A stretch of 64,000 bases of DNA from Wenyingzhuangia heitensis (lineage in GTDB: Bacteria > Bacteroidota > Bacteroidia > Flavobacteriales > Flavobacteriaceae). The translations under genes were made by a program, and so were the position numbers. This document shows positions 8,112 through 54,573 of this stretch, piece by piece (position 1 is the first letter of the stretch; the number at the start of each line of letters is the position of its first letter). The stretch covers positions 1,550,001-1,614,000 of the forward strand of contig NZ_JAASQL010000001.1 in NCBI RefSeq assembly GCF_011762155.1. The letters are read 5' to 3'. The notes under the pieces are model-generated. The model made no database searches and was not told the DNA's origin. It saw nothing but the letters and a program-made list of their open reading frames with translations.

Positions 8112-8118
8112 TAAAATC

Positions 8119-9966: not shown

Positions 9967-9974
9967 TTGAAAAG

Positions 9975-11933: not shown

Positions 11934-11945
11934 AAAAACAATAAT

Positions 11946-13514: not shown

Positions 13515-13518
13515 GAAT

Positions 13519-14346: not shown

Positions 14347-14361
14347 GTTTTTAATTCAATA

Positions 14362-14391
14362 AAAAAAGGAGAGTAAGTACTCTCCTTTTTG
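14362..14391. terminator. Bidirectional terminator between convergent genes
   Basis: A perfect stem AAAAAGGAGAG / CTCTCCTTTTT (14363-14373 with 14380-14390) has a T-A extension and loop AAGT. A-rich and T-rich flanks make it functional on both strands, for the SDR operon and the minus-strand DUF1080 gene. Confidence 0.85.
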
Positions 14392-14395
14392 ATTT

Positions 14396-30900: not shown

Positions 30901-31597
30901 ACAACAAAATATACCTACTACCATAACATCCGTAAATAATATTTTTATAGATAGGCATACTAAAGATATGTACATGTCTACAGGAGCAAGATCTGGAGAT
31001 GCAGAAGCAGGAGGTGTTTGGAAAAGTATAGATGATGGACTAAGTTGGCAAAGAATTTTTGAAGCTCCTTATGTATGGCAAACAGAGGTTTCACCAGCCA
31101 ATTCAAATATCATAACCATTTCAGTCGCTTCGCAAATTCCTACAAAGGCGAATGAATTTTTAAATCCAGGAGCGTATCTATCTCAAGATGCTGGTATTAC
31201 TTGGACCAAAATAAATAAAGGATTAGCTCACTCTGATAGAATTGTAGACTTAAAACCAGATCCTGTAGACACAAGTTTGTTATGGTGTGCTGGCTGGGGA
31301 AGTGCTTGGTACAAAGCAAAAATTAAGACAACCAATCTAAGTACATCAGAAAAAGTAAAAAGAAATAATAGACTAATGCTGTATCCTAATCCGGTTACAA
31401 ATAATAATATGTTTATAAGTGGATTAGAATCCAAATCAAATACTTCTTATGTGGTGGTAAATATAATGGGACAAAAGGTACAATCCGGATATATAAATCA
31501 AGAAAACATAGAGGTATCCTCACTTAAATCAGGAATGTATATTATTACATTTTGGGTTGATAATACTCCAATTACACGAAAATTTTATAAAAAATAG
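27917..31597 (+). CDS. Large secreted GLUG + Asp-box beta-propeller protein with T9SS sorting domain
   Basis: This is a 1226-residue secreted protein. After a signal peptide (ending near LHAQ), residues of about 30-290 form a GLUG-type beta-helical region (for example GGLVGYMSGGSIKQCFTNG). From about 310 to 1140 there are around a dozen Asp-box/BNR motifs (SxDxGxTW, such as STDTGETW, SIDGGQTW, SNDGGYTW), as in VPS10/sortilin-like or GH74-like tandem seven-bladed propellers. The signature GPGTSGYCEEFWCHPTDVNVMF is shared with the two paralogues downstream. The final 75 residues (LYPNPVTNN...GMYIITFWVD...RKFYKK) are a type A T9SS sorting domain, so it is surface-attached or released. No sialidase RIP motif is visible. 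An enzymatic role on a sulfated galactan is plausible but unproven. Confidence 0.82.
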   Translation: MLRIDIINRGKKAFSIYSFLIFLTMSLHAQYGGGDGSQSNPYLINSSTDLIQLTQNSNHWDTSYFKLTANINMEGLSFTSIGNSIKKFSGSFNGNNKTISNLTVTPNEVNEGTGFFGSFNGTVFNLGIENITITALNINRVGGLVGYMSGGSIKQCFTNGGIINVGSAGWTGGIVGVMWDGETCVVQNCYSSTTITANWGSGGVVGATRGQHTIDKVAFYGNISNEIAITTVQDDEPTGGKNGKVPTNAFYANTTGASDTNATALSDAELLEENNYITFDFSSIWEIDAIYGYAILKSFISDDELPFFEKIKTQKITSDSSVEWKNFGPGTSGYCEEFWCHPTDVNVMFSGPDMHAAFGTWDNGKTWQTLKDYDGTGVSLRRIHDIVFSTQNPDFGLLLEREGEIFKTLDRGRTWSLIQDLGKAHTKIAIHPTNDDIWFVGAGDFWNVKENHRNIANPHGLLQSRADYGYVWKTSDHGVTWEKVGASISSNLDVGRIIFNPNDPIIMIMATSHGMFRSTDTGETWTASATGLPHNLPRDLTSYYDKTTGEFILYTVEQTKYIPNGTEITTEGGVYKSIDSGITWQSITGNLGIDLQTITDYYARDRYHKSVAYWLDISKSDAKNSYTIYPTSTMPVYNRLIVNPINKNELYLVHNKKHDKGFGPGDVWKSEDGGTNWFACVRSGAYWIGDGNKSYWESKNNPTGANIDFAHLQVSQDEGSEGSGARMLAINSVGEVFTGIDQQLLRSNNKGVSWFQIDDDETFSGSNKWIGRGNTNLPGRFLLLETGVEGRKLLCSGEHGLWQTTDVGDWPDTDAVAVEQIEGQVHDHSGNQGAHSISTVAVHPNNPDIIFFLSWRQEHRGKLRKSIDGGQTWENIATIFDADNGSWESVAMQYSLLIDPINPNNMYFTSIYKPISEVGGGTGVDLTLGEYGVYRSNDGGYTWNVSNEDFPSGSSVNRIAMHPDNPQVIYAALNQWSNSDVGGLYKSVDGAISWTQQNIPTTITSVNNIFIDRHTKDMYMSTGARSGDAEAGGVWKSIDDGLSWQRIFEAPYVWQTEVSPANSNIITISVASQIPTKANEFLNPGAYLSQDAGITWTKINKGLAHSDRIVDLKPDPVDTSLLWCAGWGSAWYKAKIKTTNLSTSEKVKRNNRLMLYPNPVTNNNMFISGLESKSNTSYVVVNIMGQKVQSGYINQENIEVSSLKSGMYIITFWVDNTPITRKFYKK

Positions 31598-31614
31598 ATA
31601 AGAATATAATTAAT

Positions 31615-34230
31615 ATGATGAATAAATATTTAAGCGTTTTGTTGATTGCTTTGGTAACCGTTAAAGCCAATGCACAATTTTCTAAAAGTCAGAAAAAGTT
31701 TTTTAAAGAAATTAAAAACGAAAGAGTTGTTTCAGATCCTTCTGTAGCATGGGAACAATTTGGGCCAGGAATGTCTGGTTATAACGAAGAGTTTTGGTGT
31801 CATCCTACAGATCCAAATGTAATGTTTATGGGGCCAGATATGCATGTAAGTTACGGAACATGGGACAATGGTAAATCTTGGCAGACTATTAAAGATAGTG
31901 ATGGTGACGGAACAGATATGGAGCGTGTGTTAGATATTACTTTTTCTACGCAGAACCCAAACTTTGGAGTAGCTATAGAACGTGCGGGCGATGTATATAC
32001 ATCTAATGACAAAGGTAAAACATGGCAAGTGATATATTCTATTCCTAGAGTTAAAGGAAAACACATGAGCAATGCACATACTAAAATAGCCATCAATCCT
32101 AAAAATGATAAAGAATTTATGATTGGAGCTGGAGATTTTTGGAATGTAAAAAATAATCACAGAAGCTTAAAAAATAGTCATGGTAAATTACATCCAAGAG
32201 CAAGCTACGGATATGTTTTAAAAACGACTAATGGAGGAAAAACATTTTCAAAAATAGCAACAAATATTTCTGAAGATTTAGATGTAGGTAGAATTATTTA
32301 TCATCCTAAAAATCCATCAACAATTTTTATAGCAACAAACTATGGTGTTTTTGTTAGTAACAATGGTGGTGATAAATGGGAAGAAGCTAATAAAGGATTG
32401 CCTAATAATTTGCCAAGAGATTTAACATCATATTACAATTCTAAAACAGGAGATTTTGTTTTGTATTTGGTAGAGCAAACTATTTACGAAAAAGCAGGTA
32501 CTACAACAACAGCTAAAGGAGGTGTGTACAAAAGTAACAATAATGGAAAATCTTGGACAAACATTACGGGTAATTTAGCCATTGATTTAACTAAAATTAG
32601 TTTTTCTGCAGAAGCAGATAGATATTACAATGCAATTGGAAATTGGTTTGGAGTGCCTAAAAAACAAATAAAATCACAATTAAAAGATTTACCTACAAAA
32701 ACATTACCTGTATTTAATCATTTAGTTGTGAATCCAATGAATGAGAATGAGTTGTATGTAAATTTTAACAAAAAACATGATAAAAGTTTTGGAGCAGGAG
32801 ATTTATGGAAAACAGAAGATGGAGGTAAAACCTGGATTGCTTGTGCTCGTCAGGGAATGTACTGGAAAAGCGGAAAAGACAAAGCGTATTGGGCAAGCAG
32901 AAACAATCCTATAGGGACAAATGTAGAGTTTGCACATTTACAAACTTATATGGATAATCAGCCAGAACGTTCAGGGAACCGTATGTTGTCTATTAATAGT
33001 AAAGGAGAAGTTTTTATAGGTATAGATCAACAAACATTAAAATCATCAGATCATGGTAAGTCTTGGCAACAAATAGATGATTTTGAAACCTCACCAGGAA
33101 GTAAAAAGTGGATTTCTAGAGGAACGAGTGATTTACCAGGAAGGTTTATGTTGCATGAAACTGGAATTAAAGGAAGACGATTATTAGCTAGTGGAGAGCA
33201 TGGTTTGTGGCAAACTACAGGTTTAGAGGATTGGCCAGATAAACAAGCAGTTGCTGTAGAGCAAATTGATGGTCAGGTTCACGATCATCATGGTGGTCAC
33301 GGGCAACATTCAACGTCTACTATGGCAGTACATCCTAATGATCCTAATACTATTTTTTCTTTAGCTTGGAGACAAGAGCATAGAGGTAAATTACGAAAAA
33401 CTACAGATGGCGGTAAAACATGGACAGATATTTCAACTATTTTAGAAGGAAACAATCCAGTATACAGAGGTTTGGTTACTCAGTATTCTTTAACAATAGA
33501 TCCTAAAGAACCTAACAATATGTATTTTTGTACCATTCGTAAGCCAATTTCTGAAGTTGGAGATGGATCAGCAAAATTAACCAAAGGCGGTTTTGGTTTT
33601 TATCGTTCTTTTGATGGTGGATATACTTGGGCATTAAGTAATAACGGATTTCATAAAGGAGCAAGTGTACGTAGAATAAAATTAGATCCTAAAAATTCAA
33701 CGACAATTTATGCAGCGGTAAATGATAACAATGGAGGTTTGTATAAAACAATCAATAAAGGAACTTCTTGGGAAAAAATGAAAATTCCATCAGAAATACA
33801 AGCCGTTAATAATGTATTTGTAGATAGAAATAGCAATAATATATACATAGCTACAGGTCGTAGAACAGGAACCTACGAAGAAGGAGGAGTTTGGAAAAGT
33901 AAAAACAATGGAGAGTCTTGGGAACAAATTTTTAAAGCACCCTTTGTTTGGCAAGTAGAAACGTCTCCTTTAGATGAGAATATTATTGTTATAAGTGTTG
34001 CTGGGCAAGCAGGAAATGCTAGAGATCAGTTTAAGAATCCGGGGATTTATATTTCTCAAAATGGAGCAAAAAGTTGGACAAAAATAAACAAAGGACTGGG
34101 ACAACCTAATAAAATGGTGGATGTGAAACCAGATCCATATAATAAAAATGTAGTATGGAGTGCTGCCTGGGGATCAGGTTGGTACGTGGCTTATTTAAAC
34201 GGATCTAAAAAAGGTTGGTTAAAGGAATAA
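31615..34230 (+). CDS. Asp-box beta-propeller protein (VPS10/GH74-like), exported
   Basis: This is an 871-residue exported paralogue of the preceding protein, 17 bases downstream and probably co-transcribed. The signal peptide ends near KANAQ. It consists almost only of the propeller part, with Asp-boxes such as SNDKGKTW, TEDGGKTW, STDxGxTW-like TTDGGKTW and SFDGGYTW. It keeps the signature GPGMSGYNEEFWCHPTDPNVMFMGPDMH and the block GEHGLWQTTGLEDWPDKQAVAVEQIDGQVHDHH, rich in His and acidic residues and a possible active or metal site. It lacks the GLUG region and the T9SS tail and ends in GWYVAYLNGSKKGW. Likely periplasmic. The function is unknown; tandem propellers with this many Asp-boxes include GH74 endo-glycanases. 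Confidence 0.8.
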   Translation: MMNKYLSVLLIALVTVKANAQFSKSQKKFFKEIKNERVVSDPSVAWEQFGPGMSGYNEEFWCHPTDPNVMFMGPDMHVSYGTWDNGKSWQTIKDSDGDGTDMERVLDITFSTQNPNFGVAIERAGDVYTSNDKGKTWQVIYSIPRVKGKHMSNAHTKIAINPKNDKEFMIGAGDFWNVKNNHRSLKNSHGKLHPRASYGYVLKTTNGGKTFSKIATNISEDLDVGRIIYHPKNPSTIFIATNYGVFVSNNGGDKWEEANKGLPNNLPRDLTSYYNSKTGDFVLYLVEQTIYEKAGTTTTAKGGVYKSNNNGKSWTNITGNLAIDLTKISFSAEADRYYNAIGNWFGVPKKQIKSQLKDLPTKTLPVFNHLVVNPMNENELYVNFNKKHDKSFGAGDLWKTEDGGKTWIACARQGMYWKSGKDKAYWASRNNPIGTNVEFAHLQTYMDNQPERSGNRMLSINSKGEVFIGIDQQTLKSSDHGKSWQQIDDFETSPGSKKWISRGTSDLPGRFMLHETGIKGRRLLASGEHGLWQTTGLEDWPDKQAVAVEQIDGQVHDHHGGHGQHSTSTMAVHPNDPNTIFSLAWRQEHRGKLRKTTDGGKTWTDISTILEGNNPVYRGLVTQYSLTIDPKEPNNMYFCTIRKPISEVGDGSAKLTKGGFGFYRSFDGGYTWALSNNGFHKGASVRRIKLDPKNSTTIYAAVNDNNGGLYKTINKGTSWEKMKIPSEIQAVNNVFVDRNSNNIYIATGRRTGTYEEGGVWKSKNNGESWEQIFKAPFVWQVETSPLDENIIVISVAGQAGNARDQFKNPGIYISQNGAKSWTKINKGLGQPNKMVDVKPDPYNKNVVWSAAWGSGWYVAYLNGSKKGWLKE

Positions 34231-40271: not shown

Positions 40272-42833
40272 ATGAATAGAATCGTAGTTTTAGTTATTGC
40301 TGCCTTGTGTAGTATTAACACAAATGCTCAACTAAATAAAAAATATTTTAAATCTCTTAATAACAAACAAGTTACTTCTACAGATTTAGTACAATGGCAA
40401 CAAGTGGGGCCGGGAATGTCTGGGTACTGTGAAGAGTTTTGGTGTCATCCTACCCAAAAAAATGTAATGATGATGTCTCCAGATATGTACAATACTTATG
40501 GTACTTGGGATGGTGGGAAAAGTTGGCATACCGTTAAAGATGTAGATGGTACAGGTAAAGATATGGGGAGAATTAGAAAGTTTGAATTCTCTCATCAAAA
40601 TCCAGATTTTGGATTTGCTATTTCTGGCAGTGGACAATTGTATAAAACAACTGATACTGGAAAATCATGGAAAGCAATTACTTCTTTTAAAGGTCGTTAT
40701 TCAGAAATTACAGTAGATCCGTCTAATGATAGAAACTGGTATATAGGTATAGGTGATTTTTGGAATGTAAAAAAGAATTGGAGACATCAAAATGGACAAG
40801 TAGGTAAATTGTACAACAATGTAATTTACAGAAGTACTGATAAAGGAACTACTTGGGAAAAGTTTAAAATAGGAGATTTTGAAAAAATTGATATTGGTAG
40901 AATTATCGTACATCCAACCAATTCTAAAATTTTAATAGCTGCTACCAATCAAGGAGTATTTAGAAGTACCAATCAAGGAAAAACTTGGGAGGCTAGCGGT
41001 AAAGGATTGCCTGTAAATAGACCTAGAGACATAGATGCTTTTTTTGATGAAAAATCTAAGGAATTTGTTCTGTATTTGGTAGATCAAACAGCTTTTGTAG
41101 CAAACGGAAAAACAGTAACTACTAAAGGAGGAATTTACAAGAGTACAGATAGTGGTAAAAGTTGGCAAAATATTACAGGAAACTTAGCGGTTGATATGAC
41201 TAAAATAACCAGCAAAGGATTGCAAAATAAATATTGGAATTCAATAGCTTTTTGGTTTCAAACCAGTGCAAAAAAAATCAAACAAATACATCCTGAACTA
41301 CCAAATGAAGTATTGGATGTTTGGCACAGAATTCAAGTAAATCCAACCAATAAAAATGAAATTTATATTTCGCATAACAACAAACACGACAAGTCTTTTT
41401 TACCAGGTGGTGCATGGAAATCTAACGACGGAGGTAAAACATGGAAAGCGGTAGCAAGAGCAGGTAAATATTGGATTGATGGAAAAGACAATACGTACTG
41501 GGAATCAAGAAATAATTCTTTAAACACCAATACAAAATTTGCACACATGCAACCCGAAATGGATAGAAGAGAAGAATCTTGGGGAAATCGTTTCTTAGAA
41601 TTAAGTGTAGATGGAACAGCGTACATCTGTTTAGATCAACAAGTTTTACAATCAAAAGATGGAGGGAACAGTTGGCAACAAATAGACGATGATGAAACGG
41701 CTCCTGGTAGTAAAAATTGGGTAGGACGTGGAGATAGTAATTTACCAGGTAGAAATATGTTATTAGAAACAGGAATAAAAGACAGATATCTTTTAGGAAG
41801 TGGAGAACATGGTTTATGGCAAACAGCACCTTTAGGAAATCATCCAGATAAAATGGCGGTAGCTGTCACGCAAATTGATGGACAAATTCGTCACGGAGGG
41901 TCTCATTCTCCTGGAGCGATGGCAGTGCATCCAAACAACCCAAACATTATTTATTTTATGTCGTACAGACAAGAGAATAGAGGAATGTTGCGTAAATCTG
42001 TAGATGCAGGAAAAACATGGGAAAACATTGCGACTATTTTTGATGCTGATGTGCCACAACACATGCGATTGATTTTTCAGAACTCTTTGATAATAGATCC
42101 TGTACACCCCGAAAACATGTATTTCTGTGCAACTCGTAAACCAATATCGCAAGTTGCAGGACCTTATGCTAAAAAACTAACCAAAGGAGATTTTGGTTTT
42201 TACCGTTCTTTTGATGGAGGTTATACGTGGGAATTAAGTAACACAGGTTTACATGAAAAAGCAAGTGTGCGTAGAATTATTTTTGACGTAAATAATTCAA
42301 CAAATTTATATGCTGCAGTAAATGATAATAGTGGAGGTTTGTACAAAACAACCAATCAAGGAAAAAATTGGGAAAAGATGAAAATTCCATCAGAAATACA
42401 AAATGTAAACAATGTGTTTATGGATAGGAATACAAAATCTTTATTTATTTCTTGTGGAAACGAAGAAGCTACAGATAAAGGAGGAGGGGTTTGGAAAAGT
42501 GAAAATAACGGTGAATCTTGGACAAGAATATTTGAGATGCCTTATGTGTGGCAATGTGAAACGTCTCCAATAAATTCAAAAATAATTACGGTTTCTGTAC
42601 CCTTACCACCTAAAACAAAAAATAAAAAAGCGCAATTAAATCCAGGAGCCTATGTTTCTTTTGATGCAGGTAAAACGTGGAATAAAATCAATAAAGGTTT
42701 GGGGCAACAAGATAGAATTGTTGATTTAAAACCAGATCCATACAGAGAAGATGTTTTTTGGGCATCACAAAAAGGAAGTGGTTGGTTTATTGGTTATTTA
42801 AAAGGAACTAAAAAAGGGTGGTCAAAAAAATAA
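40272..42833 (+). CDS. Asp-box beta-propeller protein (VPS10/GH74-like), exported
   Basis: This is the third propeller paralogue (853 residues). The signal peptide ends near NTNAQ. The signature is GPGMSGYCEEFWCHPTQKNVMMMSPDM, and Asp-boxes include TTDTGKSW, STDKGTTW, STNQGKTW, SNDGGKTW, SVDAGKTW and SFDGGYTW. The block GEHGLWQTAPLGNHPDKMAVAVTQIDGQIRHGG matches the likely functional site of the other two, although the His-Asp-His part is altered to RHGGSH. It ends SGWFIGYLKGTKKGW without a sorting tail. Being between a sulfatase (11-base gap) and two SGNH esterases (61-base gap), it probably acts on the same modified galactan. Activity is unknown. Confidence 0.8.
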   Translation: MNRIVVLVIAALCSINTNAQLNKKYFKSLNNKQVTSTDLVQWQQVGPGMSGYCEEFWCHPTQKNVMMMSPDMYNTYGTWDGGKSWHTVKDVDGTGKDMGRIRKFEFSHQNPDFGFAISGSGQLYKTTDTGKSWKAITSFKGRYSEITVDPSNDRNWYIGIGDFWNVKKNWRHQNGQVGKLYNNVIYRSTDKGTTWEKFKIGDFEKIDIGRIIVHPTNSKILIAATNQGVFRSTNQGKTWEASGKGLPVNRPRDIDAFFDEKSKEFVLYLVDQTAFVANGKTVTTKGGIYKSTDSGKSWQNITGNLAVDMTKITSKGLQNKYWNSIAFWFQTSAKKIKQIHPELPNEVLDVWHRIQVNPTNKNEIYISHNNKHDKSFLPGGAWKSNDGGKTWKAVARAGKYWIDGKDNTYWESRNNSLNTNTKFAHMQPEMDRREESWGNRFLELSVDGTAYICLDQQVLQSKDGGNSWQQIDDDETAPGSKNWVGRGDSNLPGRNMLLETGIKDRYLLGSGEHGLWQTAPLGNHPDKMAVAVTQIDGQIRHGGSHSPGAMAVHPNNPNIIYFMSYRQENRGMLRKSVDAGKTWENIATIFDADVPQHMRLIFQNSLIIDPVHPENMYFCATRKPISQVAGPYAKKLTKGDFGFYRSFDGGYTWELSNTGLHEKASVRRIIFDVNNSTNLYAAVNDNSGGLYKTTNQGKNWEKMKIPSEIQNVNNVFMDRNTKSLFISCGNEEATDKGGGVWKSENNGESWTRIFEMPYVWQCETSPINSKIITVSVPLPPKTKNKKAQLNPGAYVSFDAGKTWNKINKGLGQQDRIVDLKPDPYREDVFWASQKGSGWFIGYLKGTKKGWSKK

Positions 42834-45915: not shown

Positions 45916-46770
45916 TTAAGTATACTTAGCTTCTAATAGCTTAAGATATGCAGCACTTTTTTTAACAGCATCCTCTCCTGCAATTTCAAGAGTAGAATAG
46001 CCGTTAAATCCAATTTTCACTAGCTCTTTATAAATTTCATCAATATTAATAACTCCAGACCCTAAGGGGATTAAAGACATTCCACAACCAAAAACCTTAC
46101 CTCTTTGTGCATTATATTCTTCTGGTAAATCTTTCCAGTGAACATGTTCAATTTTGTCTCCTAGTTTCTGAATCATTTCAATAGCATCACCACCTCCTAG
46201 CCATAAGTTTCCTGTATCTAAATTAATTCCTAAAGCATCAGAATCACAAGCATCTATAATACGTTCCATATAATTTACGGAATCTGTATATTTTCCATGA
46301 GGTTCTAACAGTATTTTTACACCGTAATCTTTTGCTACTTGTAAAGGTTCGTGTAATTTTTCCTTGATAGAAAAGATAGCTTCCGCATCTGAAAGATTGT
46401 GTCCAAAATTTGTATGAGCATCTCCCTCGGTAGTAATTACGTGTTTTATACCAATTGCAGCAGCCATTTTAACAGCTTTTATAATTTGAGAAGTTCCATA
46501 ACGCCAAGGTGCAGTGGCATCAAGTAATGTTGCGTGTGCACAAACACTTGTAATTTTAACACCTCTAGATTCAAACAAACGTTTGATGTCAAAGGCATTT
46601 GCATCCAAACTAGCAACTGCGTTAAACCCAAAATGAGAACCCAAACAAGCTCCGTCTGCATTGTCTGTAACATCTGCAAATTCAAATCCCCAGTCTTTAA
46701 TTTGATCTACTTGTTGCTCTAATGTTTGAAAAGGATTGATTAGTGCAAAGCAGCCTACTTTAATTGCCAT
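45916..46770 (-). CDS. Cytosolic sugar phosphate isomerase/epimerase (xylose-isomerase-like TIM barrel)
   Basis: This is a 284-residue TIM-barrel isomerase/epimerase without a signal peptide (starts MAIKVGCFALINPF), so it is cytosolic, in contrast to the exported relative at 7272. Metal-site strands are visible: VITTEGDAH, ILLEPHGKYTDS, INLDTGNLWLGGG, IEHVHWKDLPEEY and YSTLEIAGED. These match enzymes that isomerise or epimerise free or keto-sugars with a divalent metal. It is the last gene of the minus-strand operon, 25 bases after the sulfatase. Likely role: convert the (possibly oxidised) sugar released by the operon into a central-metabolism intermediate. The substrate is not known. Confidence 0.85.
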   Translation of the reverse strand: MAIKVGCFALINPFQTLEQQVDQIKDWGFEFADVTDNADGACLGSHFGFNAVASLDANAFDIKRLFESRGVKITSVCAHATLLDATAPWRYGTSQIIKAVKMAAAIGIKHVITTEGDAHTNFGHNLSDAEAIFSIKEKLHEPLQVAKDYGVKILLEPHGKYTDSVNYMERIIDACDSDALGINLDTGNLWLGGGDAIEMIQKLGDKIEHVHWKDLPEEYNAQRGKVFGCGMSLIPLGSGVINIDEIYKELVKIGFNGYSTLEIAGEDAVKKSAAYLKLLEAKYT

Positions 46771-46795
46771 AATTTTAAAATTTATAGGTTATTAA

Positions 46796-48388
46796 TTATC
46801 GTCTTTTTACTTTAACTCTTACTGCCCATTTTTCCCAACTTAGAATCATTTTTTGAAGTTTTTTAGGATATTCCTTAGCTAAATTATCTAGTTCTGTAGG
46901 GTCGTTTTTTAAGTTGTATAATTCCCAATTCTTATCTTCTAAATCTCTAGAGTATACAATTTTCCAATCTCCTTTTCTATAGGCTTTGTTAGTACCATGT
47001 TCCATAAACCAAGTATCACGATCTAATTTTTTACCCTTAAAAACGGGAACTAAACTCGTTCCTTCTATAGGTTGTATTTTATTTTGATTGTACGTTTTAG
47101 GGTATTGGCTTTTAGAAACTTCTATAAGAGTGGGCATAATATCTATAATACTAGCAATATCATTTTTAATGGTGTTTTTACCCTTAATTCCTTTTGGCCA
47201 ATGTGCAATAAATGGAGTAGCAGATCCTCCTTGATGTCCATATTTTTTGAATTTTCTATACGGAGCATTACTCAGGTTTGCCCAAGATTGGCCATAAGTT
47301 ATTTCTGTATTGATAAGGGCTTCGGCACCTTTTAATTGCTGCTCTTTTATATATTTTTTTCTTTTGGCAATAGATTCTTGCATTAAAGAAGCTCCCCAAC
47401 TAGAGGTAATATCGTAGGTTTCTTTAGAACCTCCATTGTCTGATAAGAATAGAATTAATGTGTTTTCTAACTCTCCTTCTTTTTTTAATTTTGTTATAAT
47501 TTTACCAATCCCTTGATCCATTAAATCAATTTGCGCTGCAAAAATTTGCATTCGTAACGCTTGCATTTTTTTATTTTCTACGTGATCCCAAACCAGAGCT
47601 TCTTTGTCTCGTTCACTTAGTTTTGCGTTGGGTGAAATAAGCCCCATTGTTTTCATTCTTTCTAATCGTTCAGCTCTTAGAACATTCCAACCTTTGTCAT
47701 ATACTCCTTCATAATCCTTTACTGTTTCTTCTAAAGCATGTAGTGGCCAATGTGGTGCGGTATAAGCAACATAGAAAAAGAATGGCTTTTCCTTTTTTGT
47801 CTTAAAATGTTCATTTAAAAAAGAAACTGTAGAGTCTGAAATTGCATTTGTGTAATAAAAATCATCCTCTGGTTTTATATCAACTTTTTTATTGTTGTAG
47901 AATAAAAATTCTGGATTAAAATAATTTGTACCTGCTACATTCCCATAAAATTTATCAAAACCTCTTTGCTTAGGCCAAGCATCTATTTTATCAGTTGTTC
48001 TGGAGCTAGATAAGTGCCATTTACCCGTCATATAAGTAGCGTAACCATTCGTTTTTAATGCTTCAGCAATTGTTACAGCATTGGTGCTTAAGTTAGCACC
48101 TCTACCTACCATGCCACCTATTCCTGCTTGATGTGGGTAAAGGCCAGTAACTAGAGCAGCTCGCGTAGGACAACACCTTGCATTGTTGTAAAATTGATTG
48201 AGCCTAATTCCGTTTTTAGCCAATCTATCTAGGTTGGGAGTTTTAGCTTCTCCTCCGTAACAACCTAGGTCAGAATACCCCAGATCATCAGCTAAAATTA
48301 AAATGATGTTAGTTTTTTTTTGAGCGGATAATTGAAAACACATTATTAGTAATAGTAGATGTATAATTGTATTTGCAGTTTTTGACAT
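46796..48388 (-). CDS. Sulfatase (S1 arylsulfatase-like, C-C-P-T-R motif)
   Basis: This is an exported type I sulfatase of 530 residues. A longer reading with ATG at 48457 would overlap the preceding gene and lack a signal peptide; starting at 48388 gives MSKTANTIIHLLLLIMCFQLSAQ, a good signal peptide 5 bases after the upstream stop. The formylglycine motif is C72-C-P-T-R with AALVTGLYPHQAGIGGM after it; the first metal site is NIILILADDLGYSDLGCYGGE and the second LFLSDNGGS. GHQGGSATPFIAHWPKG is the usual substrate-side motif. It is the only sulfatase of this arylsulfatase type here apart from 20608. It is the third gene of the operon containing the cupredoxin fusion. Confidence 0.92.
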   Translation of the reverse strand: MSKTANTIIHLLLLIMCFQLSAQKKTNIILILADDLGYSDLGCYGGEAKTPNLDRLAKNGIRLNQFYNNARCCPTRAALVTGLYPHQAGIGGMVGRGANLSTNAVTIAEALKTNGYATYMTGKWHLSSSRTTDKIDAWPKQRGFDKFYGNVAGTNYFNPEFLFYNNKKVDIKPEDDFYYTNAISDSTVSFLNEHFKTKKEKPFFFYVAYTAPHWPLHALEETVKDYEGVYDKGWNVLRAERLERMKTMGLISPNAKLSERDKEALVWDHVENKKMQALRMQIFAAQIDLMDQGIGKIITKLKKEGELENTLILFLSDNGGSKETYDITSSWGASLMQESIAKRKKYIKEQQLKGAEALINTEITYGQSWANLSNAPYRKFKKYGHQGGSATPFIAHWPKGIKGKNTIKNDIASIIDIMPTLIEVSKSQYPKTYNQNKIQPIEGTSLVPVFKGKKLDRDTWFMEHGTNKAYRKGDWKIVYSRDLEDKNWELYNLKNDPTELDNLAKEYPKKLQKMILSWEKWAVRVKVKRR

Positions 48389-48393
48389 AGCTT

Positions 48394-50361
48394 TTACTTT
48401 ACAATTAGCTTCGTTCTCATGGTAAATGAGTGTCCCGGGAATGTACAAACAATCCAATATTGACCAGGTGTACTAGGTGCAGTAAAGTAGATAGATTCTT
48501 TACTCTCAGGGCCTACAATTCCTGAATGAAAAAGTACCAAGTCACTATCTGGAACATAGTTCATTTCGGGTCCGTCTAAGCCTAATTGCAAAGCCATCGT
48601 CCCTACCGTATCGGGAGTATCTACACCAGGTTTCATAATAACAACATTGTGCAGCATATCGTCATTATTGGTTAATGTTAATTGTATTTTTTGATTTCGT
48701 TTAATTTCTATTTTTTCTAAATTAAATTTTAAACCAGGTACGGTTCCTAACGTTATTTTTTGATCTATTTTTTTCCAGCTAGTAGGTTTTTTAGTAATAC
48801 GCTTGGGTTGTTCTAATTTTTTAGTACCCTCCATTAGCATGGTCATTTGATGTGATTTTAACTCTCCACCTGGAACTTGATTTAACGTATAATAACCCGT
48901 ATTATGTAGTAATAGCTCTCCGTTTGTTGAGGTTAAATTAGGAATTGCCAATTGATGAATGTATCCTAAGCGCATACCGTGTACTGTTAGTTTTACCGTT
49001 AAGCCATCTTTAGAAACTTCAGCCTTGTGTACCATTGCATTTTTTTTATCTACAATAGGACTTCCATATTCTTCATGGTATTTATAGGTAAATGTTGCCA
49101 TTTTGTAATTTACAATGTCTTTGGCCATTTTTTTGTTTACAGGTTTTGTAAATTCCAGTTCAAAACCATCATCTAAAGCTTTCATGGTTTTAATTTCAAA
49201 AGGAGTTTTACCTGTCCATACCAAACGTTGTAATCCATACGATTTTCTACCTGTTGCACCCCAGCCTCTACTTGTCATTCCAACAAACATACTATTGTCT
49301 TTTGCCCAAACCATTCTTAGTATTCCAGATGAAAAACCTTCTACAAAACCAAAAGCTGCACCTTGATATACACCGTTTACTTTTTCTGAAAACACACGTA
49401 CAATTTTGCTTTGTCCTTGGTCTCCAACAAGCTGTTGTCCTTCAAAAGGTCCAAATTTTCCTCCTGTGGTATCGTATAAAATATCAGAAGTAGATATTCC
49501 TAAAATAGTATGAGGTAGCCAAACTGCTGGTGTTTTTAATTCTTTAACTTCCTTAGCATATTCGTACATAGAAAGGTGGTCGGATTTTATAGTTTCAGGT
49601 TTTAGTTTTAAAGGAGAATTTGGTTCGTCTGTCCAAATTAGTCCTGCAGGGTTTCCTACAAAATCTCCTTTTTCAACATGTGTAATCCAACCAGATCCAA
49701 TCCAATCTCCTTGATTTTCTGAATAGAAAAAATCACCATTAGGAGCAATGGTAAATCCAACAGGACCTCTAAAACCAGTAGCGATAGGAGTCATTTTTCC
49801 TTCGGGTGTAATTTTTAATAACCAAGCTCTCCATTTGGCTTTACTATAAGCTTTTCCTGCATAGGTACAATTCATGTGAACGTACATATTTCCATCTTTA
49901 TCTATTTTAGGTCCGTAAGAATATTCGTGGTAATTACCAGATAAAGGCCAAGAGTAAATTGTTTTTAAAACATCAGCTTCTCCATCATTATCTTTGTCTA
50001 TATATTGTGTAAGTTCTCCTCTTTGACTAGCAAAAAAACTATTGTCTTTGTATGCCAATCCAAGAGTTTCGTGCATTCCTTGAGCAAATAATTTGTATGT
50101 CGGTTTGGGAGATGTTGGTTTGTCAATTAGCCAAATTTCTCCTCTTCTTGTAGCAACACCTAATTTATTATCATCCGTTAAAGCAAGTCCTCCTACTTCT
50201 AAAACAATATCATCAGGAATAGGAACGTTTACTATTTTGTAAAATTCAGATTCTTTTTCTGCTTGCTCTTTGTTAAGTGTCTTTTTTTTGTTTTGAGCTA
50301 CTATTATTTGGCTTATAGAAAGTACAAATAATAAGAATATATGTTTGTATGTGTTTTTCAT
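48394..50361 (-). CDS. Sorbosone-dehydrogenase-like propeller fused to a C-terminal type I copper (azurin-like) domain
   Basis: This is an exported 655-residue protein of two parts. The first 450 residues or so form a glucose/sorbosone-dehydrogenase-like beta-propeller (LALTDDNKLGVATRRGEIWLI, GFRGPVGFTIAPNGDFFYSENQGDW), a type often annotated as a PVC-type membrane-bound dehydrogenase. The last 110 residues are an azurin/plastocyanin-like cupredoxin: H571 in MLHNVVI, then C639, H644 and M648 in CTFPGHSFTM, with the C-x4-H-x3-M spacing of azurin. The signal peptide ends near IIVAQ. A dehydrogenase passing electrons to its own copper centre is a reasonable model. It follows the DUF1080 gene by 11 bases. 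Cofactor (for example PQQ) and substrate are not evident. Confidence 0.82.
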   Translation of the reverse strand: MKNTYKHIFLLFVLSISQIIVAQNKKKTLNKEQAEKESEFYKIVNVPIPDDIVLEVGGLALTDDNKLGVATRRGEIWLIDKPTSPKPTYKLFAQGMHETLGLAYKDNSFFASQRGELTQYIDKDNDGEADVLKTIYSWPLSGNYHEYSYGPKIDKDGNMYVHMNCTYAGKAYSKAKWRAWLLKITPEGKMTPIATGFRGPVGFTIAPNGDFFYSENQGDWIGSGWITHVEKGDFVGNPAGLIWTDEPNSPLKLKPETIKSDHLSMYEYAKEVKELKTPAVWLPHTILGISTSDILYDTTGGKFGPFEGQQLVGDQGQSKIVRVFSEKVNGVYQGAAFGFVEGFSSGILRMVWAKDNSMFVGMTSRGWGATGRKSYGLQRLVWTGKTPFEIKTMKALDDGFELEFTKPVNKKMAKDIVNYKMATFTYKYHEEYGSPIVDKKNAMVHKAEVSKDGLTVKLTVHGMRLGYIHQLAIPNLTSTNGELLLHNTGYYTLNQVPGGELKSHQMTMLMEGTKKLEQPKRITKKPTSWKKIDQKITLGTVPGLKFNLEKIEIKRNQKIQLTLTNNDDMLHNVVIMKPGVDTPDTVGTMALQLGLDGPEMNYVPDSDLVLFHSGIVGPESKESIYFTAPSTPGQYWIVCTFPGHSFTMRTKLIVK

Positions 50362-50372
50362 CTTTTTATTTT

Positions 50373-52235
50373 TTACCAGATAATATCGTAGTTAACTTTT
50401 TGTTTTCCAGAAGGGATTTTTATAATTAATTCTTTTCCTTTTCCTTTAGAGCGAATAATAGGTTGGATGTTTTTGTTACCAGAAAAATCAATAAAAATAT
50501 TTTGATTTAAAATAAGATAAGTTCCGTCAGGTAAGATTTCTATAGCATCTGCTTCTGTTATTTTATGCCAAACTCCATTTTTAGAATCGGTCGTAATTTC
50601 TCTAGTTAATTTTCTTTCAGAGGTTGAAGGCGTAAATTTGTTGGCTATTTTATCCCCGTTAATTTCACGTAGAAAAGTTGGGTTTTTAAATTCATCAAAC
50701 TCATATCCTTTTTGTTCCAGCTCAATACCTTCGGGAATTGTAGTTGGCCAAATGCTATTTTCATTTTTTAAGAAAGCAAAATCCACATCGCCATGAAAAG
50801 GAATGATAGCTCCTTCGGGAAAAGCCAATTGCCCAGCACCTCTACCGTACCACATATGAGTAGCATTTACAAAACCACCATTCCAAATTTGTAATAAAGA
50901 TCCTACAGCTAAATCGTAAGAATAGTTAGTGTTTTGTGGATGTCCTACAGAAATACAATGTGTTCTTTTGTAGTCTTTGTGCATTAAAAAACTACGTTGA
51001 ACAACGGTTCTATCAGGCTTGTGTTTTAAAACAATAAAATGCATATCATTAATTTCTTTCTCTTTTTTAGACGTTTTATAAGTTGCCAAAGAATATCGCT
51101 GTAAGTGTTCACCTTCTGCATACAATTCAAACGCTCTATTTCTTGTAGAGTTTTTATTGTAGGCTATTACAAATGGAGTTTTTCCTTGTTTTAGGTGTAT
51201 AGTCGTTTTTTGAGGAGAAGGAATTGTGTTTTCATGTCCTGAGCTAGACATGTTAAAATTAAAAATTTCTTGATTACCAATACTCATAAAACCACCTCCA
51301 CTAACAAACATGGTAAATAAATATTCTGCATTTTCAGGTATGTTAAAAGTTCCGCTATATACAATTAAGTTTTTAGCATTCTTTTTTAAATCTGTTAAAG
51401 GAGATATTGTTTTTACGTTTTTTTTACGAATTGTTTTTAGCTCTAAAAGACTCGCTGTGTTTTCTATTTCTTTAGGAGATTTTTTAACTTCTGATAGGAT
51501 GTTTTCTGGCTGTAAGCTTGAAAAAGTATTTAATTTATAGCGAATATTTTTAAATGCAATGGCTTTATTTGTAGCCTGAATAACCAAAGGCCCCATAGCT
51601 ACTTCTTTAGTAAAAATAGCACCTAACGAAGGTTTTAAAATAGCTATGTTTTGAAGGACCAAGTTGTTGTTTACAACGATTTCTTCAAAATGTGCATTTC
51701 TAATTTTATTTCCATCAGTATCAAATTTTGGAGCTTGAAATACAATTTTTACATGTTGCCACAAACCAGGAGCTTTTGCCATGTTTTGTGTAGTAATCAT
51801 TTTTTGTTGTTCTATATTTCCAATATTTTGAATTGAGTTTTTAGTGTTGCTCCAACTATCGTTTAGTAAAACTTTATACCTTCCTTGTAAATAAATACCG
51901 GATTGTACTCCTTTACTTAACATTACATCAAACTCAAGCTCAATATTTCCATGTTCTTGTTTGCTAATAAGATTTTGATTTTTTTTAGACCTTTTAAGGT
52001 TGGTTAAAACACCTTTTCCTTTTTTAGATAGGATTAATTTATTTTCTTTTCTGTTTATGGATACATTTTTAGTAATCATCCAATTTTTACTGCTCTTTTT
52101 AAAAGCTTTTAAATTGGTTAATTCTATAGTAGAATGTTTTAGTTCTTCTTTTTTTAGTTTTTCTTCTTGTGCAAAACAATGTGTAGTTGCAAATATGGTA
52201 GATAGAAATAAATAGATTAATAATTTATTTTTCAT
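50373..52235 (-). CDS. DUF1080 domain protein with PA14-like middle domain and unknown C-terminal region
   Basis: This is an exported 620-residue protein, first gene of the minus-strand operon. The signal peptide ends near HCFAQ. Residues of about 60-240 are DUF1080-like (GNIELEFDVMLSKGVQSGIYLQGRYKV, KAPGLWQHVKIVFQAPKFD, AIAFKNIRYK), the fold of 3-keto-disaccharide hydrolases. A PA14-like sandwich follows (about 295-390: YSGTFNIPENAEYLFTMFVSGGGFMSIGNQEI). The C-terminal third (from about HFIVLKHKPDRTVVQRSFL, including GSLLQIWNGGFVNATHMWYGRGAGQLAFPEG) is a region I do not recognise with certainty. It is next to the cupredoxin fusion, a common partnership in Bacteroidota and Planctomycetes. Role in oxidative glycan cleavage is inference. 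Confidence 0.75.
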   Translation of the reverse strand: MKNKLLIYLFLSTIFATTHCFAQEEKLKKEELKHSTIELTNLKAFKKSSKNWMITKNVSINRKENKLILSKKGKGVLTNLKRSKKNQNLISKQEHGNIELEFDVMLSKGVQSGIYLQGRYKVLLNDSWSNTKNSIQNIGNIEQQKMITTQNMAKAPGLWQHVKIVFQAPKFDTDGNKIRNAHFEEIVVNNNLVLQNIAILKPSLGAIFTKEVAMGPLVIQATNKAIAFKNIRYKLNTFSSLQPENILSEVKKSPKEIENTASLLELKTIRKKNVKTISPLTDLKKNAKNLIVYSGTFNIPENAEYLFTMFVSGGGFMSIGNQEIFNFNMSSSGHENTIPSPQKTTIHLKQGKTPFVIAYNKNSTRNRAFELYAEGEHLQRYSLATYKTSKKEKEINDMHFIVLKHKPDRTVVQRSFLMHKDYKRTHCISVGHPQNTNYSYDLAVGSLLQIWNGGFVNATHMWYGRGAGQLAFPEGAIIPFHGDVDFAFLKNENSIWPTTIPEGIELEQKGYEFDEFKNPTFLREINGDKIANKFTPSTSERKLTREITTDSKNGVWHKITEADAIEILPDGTYLILNQNIFIDFSGNKNIQPIIRSKGKGKELIIKIPSGKQKVNYDIIW

Positions 52236-52543: not shown

Positions 52544-53545
52544 ATGTTAGAAAAAATACAGCCTTATAAAGAAGAAGCTATTGTTTACCATGCAGATACC
52601 TGTTTGTCGTTAACAGATGCGGTACGCAGAAACAAAGTAGAGCTTAAAGCTTTAGGCAGATTTACATATCCGGGAGATAGACTGGATGAAGACACTATAG
52701 GTTTAAATAGTATTGGTTATTGGAATGCGAGTATTCCACAAGATTGGGGATTAGATTGGCATCGGAACGAAGGAATAGAGTTTCAATTTTTAGAATCTGG
52801 ATCAATGCCCTATGGACAGGAAGGCAAAGAAATGGTGTTAATGCCAAATTATTTAACAGTAATTCGTCCTTGGGAAGTACACAGAGTTGGCAATCCTACT
52901 ATAGGAATGGGAAAGTTTTTTTGGTTTATTATTGATTTGGGAGTAAGAAGACCTCATGAAGAATGGGTTTGGCCAGATTGGATTACACTTACTTCAAAAG
53001 ACTTATGTAGACTCACAACTATTTTAAGACAAAATGAAAAAACAACTTGGAAAACAGATGATAAGATTTTGGATTGTTTTAAAAATATAGAGCAAGCCAT
53101 TAAAACGTATAAAAAAGGAAATAGTGCTTCTAAGTTAAGAGTGTTGATTAATTATTTGTTGGTGTTAATGTTGGAATTGTTAGATACAGGTGATGTTATT
53201 TTAAATGAATCATTAACCGATAGTTCTAGGAGTGTTGCTTATTTTTTAAAAGAATTAGATAGTGATTTGTCTAAAGATTGGACAATAAAAAGTATGGCAA
53301 ATTCCGCAGGAGTAGGGGTAACTCGTTTAACACATCACTGCAAAAAGTTAACAAATTTAACTCCTATGAAATACTTGTTTCTTAGACGATTGGAGGTTGC
53401 AAAGACAATATTGAAAGAGAATAAAGAGTTTACGGTTAGTGAAATAGCTTATAAATGTGGTTTTTCTAGCAGTCAGTATTTTTCTACCATATTTAAAAAA
53501 TACGAAAAGTGTACTCCTAAAGAATATCAACAAAAAATAAAATAA
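52544..53545 (+). CDS. AraC-family transcriptional regulator
   Basis: This is a 333-residue AraC/XylS regulator. The N-terminal half is a cupin-like ligand-binding domain (GIEFQFLESGSMPYGQEGKEMVLMPNYLTVIRPWEVHRVG), and the C-terminal 100 residues hold the two helix-turn-helix motifs (DWTIKSMANSAGVGVTRLTHHCKK and FTVSEIAYKCGFSSSQYFSTIFKK, ending CTPKEYQQ). No signal peptide, so cytosolic. It is divergent from the DUF1080-cupredoxin-sulfatase-isomerase operon, with the inverted repeat at 52352-52390 between them; it most likely senses a sugar from that route and activates the operon. The effector is unknown. Confidence 0.92.
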   Translation: MLEKIQPYKEEAIVYHADTCLSLTDAVRRNKVELKALGRFTYPGDRLDEDTIGLNSIGYWNASIPQDWGLDWHRNEGIEFQFLESGSMPYGQEGKEMVLMPNYLTVIRPWEVHRVGNPTIGMGKFFWFIIDLGVRRPHEEWVWPDWITLTSKDLCRLTTILRQNEKTTWKTDDKILDCFKNIEQAIKTYKKGNSASKLRVLINYLLVLMLELLDTGDVILNESLTDSSRSVAYFLKELDSDLSKDWTIKSMANSAGVGVTRLTHHCKKLTNLTPMKYLFLRRLEVAKTILKENKEFTVSEIAYKCGFSSSQYFSTIFKKYEKCTPKEYQQKIK

Positions 53546-53715: not shown

Positions 53716-54573
53716 ATGAAACAATTTGTAACAATTATAATAGCAGTCTTTGGTTTTTATAGTGGTCAAGCACAACAGAAAAATAACGAAAAAGAACATC
53801 ATACTTTTGATAATAGTTATACGGTTGATGAAAAAATAAAAACAGCTTTGGAAACAAATAGTTTTTACGGAATGCCATCTCCTAAAGATCATAGAGCAAC
53901 AGAGTTTTATACTCCTGTTCCGGCAAAAGTAGATCCTTACGGACAAAATGGGGTGCCTAGTGATGCTATTGTATTGTTTGATGGAACTAATATGGATGAG
54001 TGGATCAATCAGAAAGAACAAATTCCTTGTACTTGGAAACTAGACAAAGAAGAAAAAACGATGACAATAGCTAAAGGAGGAAAAAAAATAAACGCAACCA
54101 TTGTTACCAAACGCAAATTTGGAGCCATACAATTGCATGTAGAATGGAAATCTCCTCCTGCAATAAAATCAAGAACAGGGCAAGCAAGAGGAAATAGTGG
54201 TGTTGCTACAGATATTAGGTATGAGGTTCAGATATTGGATAATAATGACAATGAAACTTATGTAAACGGTATGGTGGGTTCTATTTACAAGCAATCTGCA
54301 CCTTTGGTAAATCCTTCTGTACCTACGGGAGCGTGGAATAGTTATGATATTATTTACCATCCGCCTGTTTTTAAAGGAACTAAAAGAATGAAAGCAGCTA
54401 CTATGACTGTGCTTCATAACGGAGTTTTAATACAAGACCATTTTTCTATACAAGGAGCAGTAGCTTATATAGGTTGGCCAAGGCAAGAAGTACATGGTAA
54501 AGAAGCAATTAGACTACAAGACCATGGAAGTGCAGTTAGTTACAGAAATATTTGGGTAAGAGAGCTGGAATAG
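53716..54573 (+). CDS. DUF1080 (3-keto-disaccharide hydrolase family) protein, exported
   Basis: This is a 285-residue exported single-domain DUF1080 protein. The signal peptide ends near SGQAQ. After a polar region of about 75 residues (through PYGQNGVPSDA), the domain starts with IVLFDGTNMDEW and includes GAIQLHVEWKSP, GNSGV, YEVQILDNNDNETY, WNSYDIIYHPP and the closing YRNIWVRELE. These match the DUF1080/PF06439 beta-sandwich, studied members of which cleave 3-keto-glycosides. It lies 170 bases after the AraC gene and ends in a hairpin shared with the convergent gene. It is the third DUF1080-type protein in the window. Confidence 0.88.
   Translation: MKQFVTIIIAVFGFYSGQAQQKNNEKEHHTFDNSYTVDEKIKTALETNSFYGMPSPKDHRATEFYTPVPAKVDPYGQNGVPSDAIVLFDGTNMDEWINQKEQIPCTWKLDKEEKTMTIAKGGKKINATIVTKRKFGAIQLHVEWKSPPAIKSRTGQARGNSGVATDIRYEVQILDNNDNETYVNGMVGSIYKQSAPLVNPSVPTGAWNSYDIIYHPPVFKGTKRMKAATMTVLHNGVLIQDHFSIQGAVAYIGWPRQEVHGKEAIRLQDHGSAVSYRNIWVRELE

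What the first reader, a model, noticed from the sequence alone, without database searches (positions are those of the whole stretch)
45916..52235. Operon joining a dehydrogenase-cupredoxin fusion, a DUF1080-PA14 protein, a sulfatase and a sugar isomerase
The four minus-strand genes form a coherent oxidative route. A sorbosone-dehydrogenase-like propeller carries its own azurin-type copper site (H571, C639, H644, M648). A DUF1080 protein is of the fold that cleaves 3-keto-glycosides. A sulfatase and a cytosolic isomerase complete the set. Together they could desulfate, oxidise and then cleave a sulfated galactan without a classical hydrolase. I am not aware of such a route being shown for red-algal galactans. 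The visible facts are the domains and order; the pathway is inference.
Basis: partly seen in the sequence, partly recalled or inferred. Interest (0 to 1): 0.68.

Follow-up and report, generated by a model that had tools for sequence, protein, structure and literature searches.

The report
Copper-linked sugar dehydrogenase with DUF1080 partner
Many Bacteroidota carry side by side an uncharacterised sugar-dehydrogenase-like protein with its own copper electron-transfer domain and a protein of the family that breaks oxidised sugar linkages, which suggests an untested, respiration-linked way of breaking down glycans; the sulfatase and sugar isomerase next to this copy are not a conserved part of it.

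Summary
The four minus-strand genes, their domains and the azurin-type copper site are real; a PA14 fold in the DUF1080 protein is supported by a structure model. The four-gene set is not a conserved operon. Only DUF1080-PA14 plus propeller-cupredoxin is: a DUF1080b homologue lies directly upstream in 73 of 80 named loci and 26 of 28 loci of a separate phylum sample. A sulfatase follows directly in 3 of 80, an isomerase relative lies within 6 kb in 1 of 80; this isomerase has no match at E 1e-20 in 394 other Bacteroidota genomes. In 3 of the 12 first loci (window included) and 3 of 28 in the phylum sample the same propeller ends in a cytochrome c instead, so the tail is most likely an electron acceptor. 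Gfo/Idh/MocA dehydrogenases, beside 20 of 30 other DUF1080 loci, were found within about 1.5 kb of none of the 80 pairs. Best reading: a periplasmic, respiratory-chain-linked glycoside dehydrogenase, probably C3-specific, feeding DUF1080 chemistry. The window's own fused DUF1080 domain has lost near-invariant residues; a stand-alone DUF1080 next door keeps them. The locus is rich in classical hydrolases. Substrate, cofactor and regiochemistry are untested.

The parts
50373..52235 (-). DUF1080b: DUF1080 (Pfam res. 48-233) + PA14 (res. 244-385) + conserved C-terminal domain (res. ~402-620, fold not tested), with a hydrophobic N-terminal leader
51525..52148 (-). DUF1080 domain (model res. 30-237); window copy has lost N111, E121, Q123, H223, G224 and has a short deletion
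51081..51506 (-). PA14 domain (model res. 244-385)
50376..51032 (-). C-terminal domain found, within the loci searched, only in the propeller's DUF1080 partner
48394..50361 (-). Propeller-cupredoxin fusion (six blades by its matches) with a hydrophobic N-terminal leader, putative periplasmic sugar dehydrogenase
49192..50256 (-). Propeller domain (res. 36-390); invariant H145, R198, R349 and others
48394..48762 (-). Azurin/auracyanin-like cupredoxin domain; ligands H571, C639, H644, M648
46796..48391 (-). Arylsulfatase with N-terminal leader (PF00884, CCPTR motif), nearest solved 7ALL and 1HDH; accessory, not a conserved partner of the pair
45916..46770 (-). AP_endonuc_2 TIM barrel without leader (IolE-like at best, far below cut-off); accessory, no match at E 1e-20 in 394 other Bacteroidota genomes
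52544..53545 (+). Divergent AraC-type regulator
53716..54573 (+). DUF1080c: stand-alone DUF1080 with leader and with the motif residues kept; likely the active DUF1080 of this copy

Best explanation
The functional unit is the pair DUF1080b + propeller-cupredoxin. The propeller is a periplasmic sugar/glycoside dehydrogenase of quinoprotein-like fold that oxidises a hydroxyl of a glycan residue, most likely C3, and passes the electrons to its own C-terminal blue-copper domain (in some relatives a cytochrome c), hence to the respiratory chain. The 3-keto-glycoside is then cleaved by elimination/hydration in the DUF1080 partner; in this copy probably by the stand-alone DUF1080c, because the fused DUF1080 domain has lost key residues. 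Sulfatase and TIM-barrel protein are local additions: the first would unmask the residue, the second would process a keto-sugar in the cytosol. Shown by sequence or model: genes, pairing, copper ligands, domain swap, folds. Inferred: location, oxidation, C3 position, cofactor, substrate, electron route.
For: Pairing: DUF1080b directly upstream on the same strand in 12 of 12 first loci with the ~650-aa protein, window included, 73 of 80 named loci, 26 of 28 loci of a phylum sample. Electron-transfer domain exchange: cupredoxin or CxxCH cytochrome c on the same propeller (Pfam cytochrome c in L039 and, just at its cut-off, L041); one cytochrome-type locus has a separate cupredoxin gene just upstream of the pair (L041). 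Fold: best structural matches are sugar dehydrogenases of the PQQ type, Z 27.7 to 26.1 over 282-298 residues, against 24.1 and below for other propellers. Dehydrogenase replacement: Gfo/Idh/MocA near 0 of 80 pairs (55 of 80 hold the full 1.5 kb on both sides) but 20 of 30 other DUF1080 loci; 0 of 28 in the phylum sample. DUF1080 fold matches 3-keto-2-hydroxy-glucal hydratases and a 3-keto-glycoside eliminase/hydratase. Precedent: in Caulobacter a membrane-bound lactose 3-dehydrogenase is proposed to work with a periplasmic DUF1080 3'-ketolactose hydrolase (PMC9007349, passages).
Against: No biochemistry. The PQQ site is only partly matched (weak alignment, E 0.002, probability 14%): K377 and R406 of sGDH have no counterpart, the calcium-site acid is not matched, and the catalytic His aligns only with a one-residue shift. 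sGDH and AA12 themselves score no better (Z 22-23) than unrelated propellers. No PQQ gene over cut-off was found in the genome, and GSDH proper is absent. The window's DUF1080b lost 5 of 8 motif residues. The Gfo/Idh/MocA comparison uses non-independent loci; the 30 are the best-scoring of 126 profile matches, mostly one set of genomes (18 of 28 distinct genes, counted by hand).
Confidence: 0.55

Rival explanations
1. The propeller is a C1 (aldose/aldehyde) dehydrogenase like Asd/sGDH, oxidising reducing ends or released sugars such as anhydrogalactose; DUF1080b is a carbohydrate-binding or anchoring partner.
For: Closest folds are titled aldose, sugar or glucose dehydrogenases; the window's DUF1080 domain has lost motif residues and is joined to PA14, a common glycan-binding fold.
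Against: 72 of 85 partner rows keep all eight motif residues, which a mere anchor need not; the pair is spread far beyond red-algal degraders.
Confidence: 0.22
2. The four genes are one dedicated desulfation-oxidation-cleavage-isomerisation route for a sulfated red-algal galactan.
For: Tight spacing, many sulfatases, a lambda-carrageenase-type gene about 54 kb away in the same carbohydrate-gene region. lambda-carrageenan lacks the anhydro bridge (PMC12549532, opening text), so C3-OH of its 4-linked residue is free (inference).
Against: Sulfatase and isomerase are not conserved with the pair; the isomerase has no match at E 1e-20 in 394 other Bacteroidota; hydrolases abound; the described lambda-carrageenan cascade is hydrolytic (PMC12549532, abstract and passages).
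Confidence: 0.15
3. The propeller is not an enzyme but a binding or signalling domain, and the copper domain serves copper handling or peroxide defence.
For: Cofactor site only partly conserved; six-bladed propellers of many other uses match it too.
Against: Exchange of cupredoxin for cytochrome c, invariant polar residues (H97, E98, Q113, R114, H145, R198, R322, R365, each 92 of 92 rows) and steady pairing with DUF1080.
Confidence: 0.08

Closest known systems
Caulobacter LacABC + DUF1080 (CCNA_01705) lactose route
   Same: Periplasmic, membrane-linked 3-oxidation of a glycoside followed by a DUF1080 protein (PMC9007349, passages).
   Different: Here the partner is a propeller with its own copper or heme domain; a LacABC homologue near the pair was not looked for.
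Bacteroides-type 3-keto-glycoside pathway (Gfo/Idh/MocA dehydrogenases, TIM-barrel enzyme, DUF1080 hydratase BT2157)
   Same: DUF1080 fold (8tda, 8v31, 9fbe); a TIM barrel is nearby.
   Different: No Gfo/Idh/MocA found near the pair. The pathway details are recalled; the 2024 paper was not held.
Six-bladed PQQ sugar dehydrogenases (sGDH, Asd, fungal AA12 pyranose dehydrogenase)
   Same: Fold; R198 aligns with sGDH R228 and R349 with R408 (motif numbering mine); invariant H145 near the catalytic His. AA12 pyranose dehydrogenase also carries a fused electron-transfer domain (AA8) (PMC6881789, passages).
   Different: K377/R406 equivalents missing; the window protein has no GSDH match; copper or cytochrome c domain in place of cytochrome b.
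TIGR02604 / DUF7133 propellers (PVC-type heme-binding)
   Same: Sub-threshold profile matches (L039 passes the DUF7133 cut-off); a larger relative fuses ThuA, DUF7133, HEAT and azurin-like domains (L046).
   Different: Shorter, TIGR02604 score far below cut-off, separate DUF1080 partner.
AtOGE / CGE Mn-dependent 3-keto-glycoside beta-eliminases and IolE
   Same: Isomerase has a TIM barrel with E156-x-H158, D185, H211, E262, reminiscent of the CGE/OGE metal site (PMC10628242, passages; residues placed by eye).
   Different: IolE score 55 against a cut-off of 290; substrate unknown.

Membership tests
Type I cupredoxin (azurin/auracyanin) | His-Cys-His-Met ligand set and cupredoxin fold | tested here: met
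   (copper binding itself not tested)
PQQ six-bladed sugar dehydrogenase (GSDH/Asd/AA12) | Propeller fold closest to this family | tested here: met
   the six best rows are sugar dehydrogenases, Z 27.7-26.1; next 24.1 (a Diels-Alderase), many others about 22; sGDH and AA12 at 23.4-22
PQQ six-bladed sugar dehydrogenase (GSDH/Asd/AA12) | Catalytic His (sGDH H144) and Arg (R228) | tested here: inconclusive
   R198 aligned; H145 off by one residue in a weak alignment; both 92 of 92 rows
PQQ six-bladed sugar dehydrogenase (GSDH/Asd/AA12) | PQQ-carboxylate contacts K377 and R406 (bacterial enzymes) | tested here: not met
   G316 and I/V347, in a weak alignment; AA12 also lacks K377
PQQ six-bladed sugar dehydrogenase (GSDH/Asd/AA12) | GSDH profile over cut-off | tested here: not met
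   window protein no match; relative L119 23.0 bits against 25
PQQ six-bladed sugar dehydrogenase (GSDH/Asd/AA12) | PQQ made by the host | tested here: inconclusive
   nothing over cut-off in this genome, and no PqqC over cut-off in 395 Bacteroidota (27 weak PqqC matches, not in this one), but no control genome rang over the cut-off
3keto-disac_hyd (PF06439) | Profile match over cut-off | tested here: met
   62.3 against 26.8 bits
3keto-disac_hyd (PF06439) | Residues near-invariant in this subfamily (N, S, E-x-Q, D, Q, H, G) kept | tested here: not met
   3 of 8 in the window copy; 8 of 8 in 72 of 85 rows; their catalytic role is inferred
Gfo/Idh/MocA-type 3-keto-glycoside pathway | Gfo/Idh/MocA dehydrogenase next to DUF1080 | tested here: not met
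   0 of 80 within about 1.5 kb, 3 of 80 within 5.5 kb; 55 of 80 hold 1.5 kb on both sides
LacABC + DUF1080 system | LacABC homologues | not tested
   no LacA search was run
IolE / OGE-type TIM-barrel eliminases | Over curated cut-off of an equivalog family | tested here: not met
   nine NCBIfam matches, all far below cut-off
PA14 domain | PA14 fold | tested here: met
   (6qe7 Z 12.9, 127 residues, rmsd 2.7); no Pfam match for the window protein

The most novel reading that the evidence does not exclude
A widespread, uncharacterised class of respiratory glycoside 3-dehydrogenases: propellers with an exchangeable blue-copper or cytochrome c tail and a divergent cofactor pocket (PQQ bound in a new way, or another cofactor) that replace the Gfo/Idh/MocA enzymes and, with their DUF1080 partner, make an extracytoplasmic oxidative glycan-cleaving couple wired to the respiratory chain.
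Probability: 0.38. Interest if true: 0.8.

Novelty: new variant of a known kind. Interest (0 to 1): 0.56.

Why it matters
DUF1080 chemistry is a recently recognised, non-hydrolytic way to break glycosides, and its usual neighbours in the relatives examined here are Gfo/Idh/MocA-type dehydrogenases (20 of 30 loci). If the propeller is the dehydrogenase, many Bacteroidota would couple glycan cleavage directly to respiration outside the cytoplasm, with copper or heme as the wire. The pairing makes this testable with two proteins and a dye assay, and would give a function to two groups of proteins that now carry no useful name.

Tried and rejected
Four-gene operon as the unit: rejected by neighbourhood counts. 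These counts rest on BLAST or profile matches to the window's own proteins and their relatives, so unrelated TIM barrels or sulfatases would be missed, and only 42 of 80 loci hold 6 kb on both sides. Relatives of the isomerase: 4 of 59 other close genomes gave only partial matches of 24-34% identity, none of 394 others matched at E 1e-20; the plasmid hits listed have 25.9-34.5% identity. Known structure for the unannotated 592-aa neighbour in L180: no match; the 778-aa neighbour in L179 matches GH5 mannanases weakly. GH110 was not sought by a profile, so whether a full hydrolytic lambda-carrageenan set is present stays open. PQQ biosynthesis: no match over cut-off, no control rang over the cut-off, so not decisive. 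The first hhalign attempt with wrongly chosen GSDH frames failed and was redone. Idea that loss of the fused DUF1080 active site goes with a stand-alone DUF1080 nearby: seen in the window and three Dyadobacter loci, but not in L104, L115, L120, while five loci with an intact or nearly intact fused domain (L047, L049, L072, L096, L118) also have one within 6 kb, as do L031-L033; suggestive only. Lipobox-like leaders: 47 of 85 DUF1080b rows by a loose pattern; location left open. Residues 385-620 of DUF1080b were barely covered by the structural matches, so no fold is claimed. The sulfatase's substrate was not settled; the S1_4/3-O-sulfogalactose link is recalled and the two papers tried were not held.

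Papers: PMC9007349, PMC6881789, PMC10628242, PMC5698469 and PMC5673643 seen as passages; PMC12549532 as abstract, opening text and passages; all others as search listings. Nothing in print on this pair was seen in the listings of searches; these cover open-licence papers only and several listings were capped (e.g. 25 of 225, 15 of 330).
Full report
OBSERVATION. Pfam and NCBIfam confirm a TIM barrel, a sulfatase with the formylglycine-type motif CCPTR, a C-terminal cupredoxin, and a DUF1080 domain. The copper ligands are numbered correctly. PA14 is missed by Pfam but shown by the structure model and a family profile.

WHAT IS CONSERVED. In relatives, each of the 12 loci with the ~650-residue propeller protein (the window and L031-L041) has a DUF1080b homologue directly upstream on the same strand; the more distant, larger proteins in L042, L043 and L046 were set aside. 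In 73 of these 80 a DUF1080b homologue lies directly upstream (gap -52 to 398 bp, mostly under 25); one more (L089) overlaps by 163 bp; six have no recognised one. A sulfatase follows directly in 3 of 80 and lies within 6 kb in 22 of 80; an isomerase relative is within 6 kb in 1 of 80, all by BLAST to the window's proteins; 42 of 80 loci hold 6 kb on both sides. In a phylum sample, 33 of 395 genomes, this one included, had a match at E 1e-40. Without this genome and G007, 31 remain; loci were held for 28. Of these 28, 26 have the partner upstream, 25 have a cupredoxin, 3 a cytochrome c motif, none a Gfo/Idh/MocA gene in the flanks held. None of the 28 propellers is more than 88% identical to those of the 92-row alignment, so the samples do not overlap; that alignment holds three duplicates (L060/L034, L079/L038, L063/L035), and so does the 85-row one of their partners.

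THE ELECTRON TAIL. In L039, L040 and L041 the alignment shows the same propeller followed by a CxxCH segment; Pfam names it cytochrome c in L039 and, just at its cut-off, in L041. L041 also has a separate cupredoxin gene upstream of the pair. An exchangeable copper or heme tail is hard to explain unless the propeller delivers electrons.

THE PROPELLER. The model (pLDDT 87) matches best 2ism, 3a9g, 7cgz, 7cdy, 2g8s and 3das, all titled sugar or glucose dehydrogenases (Z 27.7-26.1). An unrelated Diels-Alderase follows at 24.1; AA12 enzymes at 23.4-22.5 and sGDH at 22.8 are level with many unrelated propellers. A profile alignment with 15 GSDH proteins of relatives (weak: E 0.002, probability 14%) puts R198 on the Arg of the RNP motif, R349 on the second Arg of GRxRD, and H145 one residue off the catalytic His; the Lys and first Arg positions are Gly and Ile/Val, and the calcium acid is not matched (sGDH/AA12 roles from PMC6881789 passages; assignment of motifs to sGDH numbers is mine). 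H97, E98, Q113, R114, H145, R198, R322, R349 and R365 are invariant in 92 of 92 rows. The genome has no GSDH and no PQQ gene over cut-off, with controls that did not ring over the cut-off. I therefore do not call it a PQQ enzyme, only say it is built and probably works like one.

THE DUF1080 PARTNER. The model (pLDDT 86) shows DUF1080, PA14 and a further domain. The DUF1080 part matches 4qhz best (Z 21.1), then a 3-keto-glycoside eliminase/hydratase (9fbe, 18.9) and, among others, 3-keto-2-hydroxy-glucal hydratases (8v31, 8tda, about 17.5). Of eight motif residues, 72 of 85 rows keep all and 4 keep seven; the window keeps three, as does L104; L101, L111, L113, L115 and L120 keep one or two; L075 and L121 are cut by contig ends. 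The window's neighbour DUF1080c keeps NSG, E-x-Q, D and DHG. Window and own-genome paralogue L031 are sisters in the propeller tree (100/99); the paralogue's DUF1080b keeps the residues, so the loss most likely happened in this copy. The C-terminal domain turned up only in DUF1080b proteins in the loci searched.

WHICH DEHYDROGENASE. With four Gfo/Idh/MocA seeds (checked), such a gene was found within about 1.5 kb of 0 of 80 pairs and within 5.5 kb of 3 of 80; among the 30 best-placed of 126 DUF1080 matches in relatives for which loci were given 20 have one and none has the propeller. 55 of the 80 pairs hold the full 1.5 kb on both sides. Two pairs of those 30 are halves of one gene (L186/L197, L190/L205), giving 18 of 28, and two (L203, L204) are the stand-alone DUF1080 beside a pair. 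The Fisher value (7e-15) ignores relatedness and selection and is not used as a probability. DUF1080 genes thus tend to sit beside either a Gfo/Idh/MocA-type dehydrogenase or this propeller.

THE ACCESSORY GENES. The isomerase has no match at E 1e-20 in 394 other Bacteroidota. Its best family is IolE, a keto-cyclitol dehydratase, far below cut-off, and its E-x-H/D/H/E pattern resembles OGE/CGE eliminases, so 'isomerase' may be the wrong name; it could act on keto-sugars. The sulfatase is a full-length arylsulfatase, nearest solved 7ALL and 1HDH.

SUBSTRATE. About 54 kb from the finding, upstream of the window, lies a lambda-carrageenase-type protein with GH2 and sulfatase genes; the window itself has agarase-CBM, GH16, GH3 and GH43 proteins and many sulfatases. 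lambda-carrageenan is thus a possible guess for the region, and one of few red-algal galactans whose 4-linked residue has a free C3-OH. The published cascade for it is hydrolytic (PMC12549532), and Zobellia's kappa/iota route oxidises anhydrogalactose to the aldonate with NAD (PMC5698469 passages). The pair's spread through many Bacteroidota genera says its chemistry is more general than any one alga.

VERDICT. Ordinary parts in an unusual and conserved couple.

Noticed in passing
window 7272-15289: A second oxidative-looking group: TIM barrel with a leader, sulfatase, FAD-dependent oxidoreductase (PF12831) whose N-terminus starts MKRREFF, MFS sugar transporter, SDR, and a stand-alone DUF1080 on the other strand.
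   Followed up: no
window 8119-9966: Sulfatase whose motif reads CAISR where SULF55 and SULF61 of the window have CAPSR.
   Followed up: partly
L179:8995-11700: lambda-carrageenase-type protein (CGLA domains) about 8 kb before the window's start and 54 kb from the finding, with GH2 and sulfatase genes.
   Followed up: partly
L046:4626-8129: A 1167-aa protein fusing ThuA, DUF7133 propeller, HEAT repeats and an azurin domain, followed by a TIM barrel (psicose-epimerase-like, below cut-off) and a Gfo/Idh/MocA gene.
   Followed up: partly
L101, L111, L113 (Dyadobacter): Fused DUF1080 domain degenerate and a stand-alone DUF1080 gene 38-56 bp downstream of the propeller gene, like the situation in the window.
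   Followed up: partly
window 27917-34230 and 40272-42833: Three large BNR/sortilin-type proteins within the sulfatase-rich region, function unknown.
   Followed up: no
L031: Own-genome paralogue of the pair sits with a GH28-type protein, a hybrid two-component regulator, sulfatases and a stand-alone DUF1080, i.e. probably a different glycan locus.
   Followed up: partly
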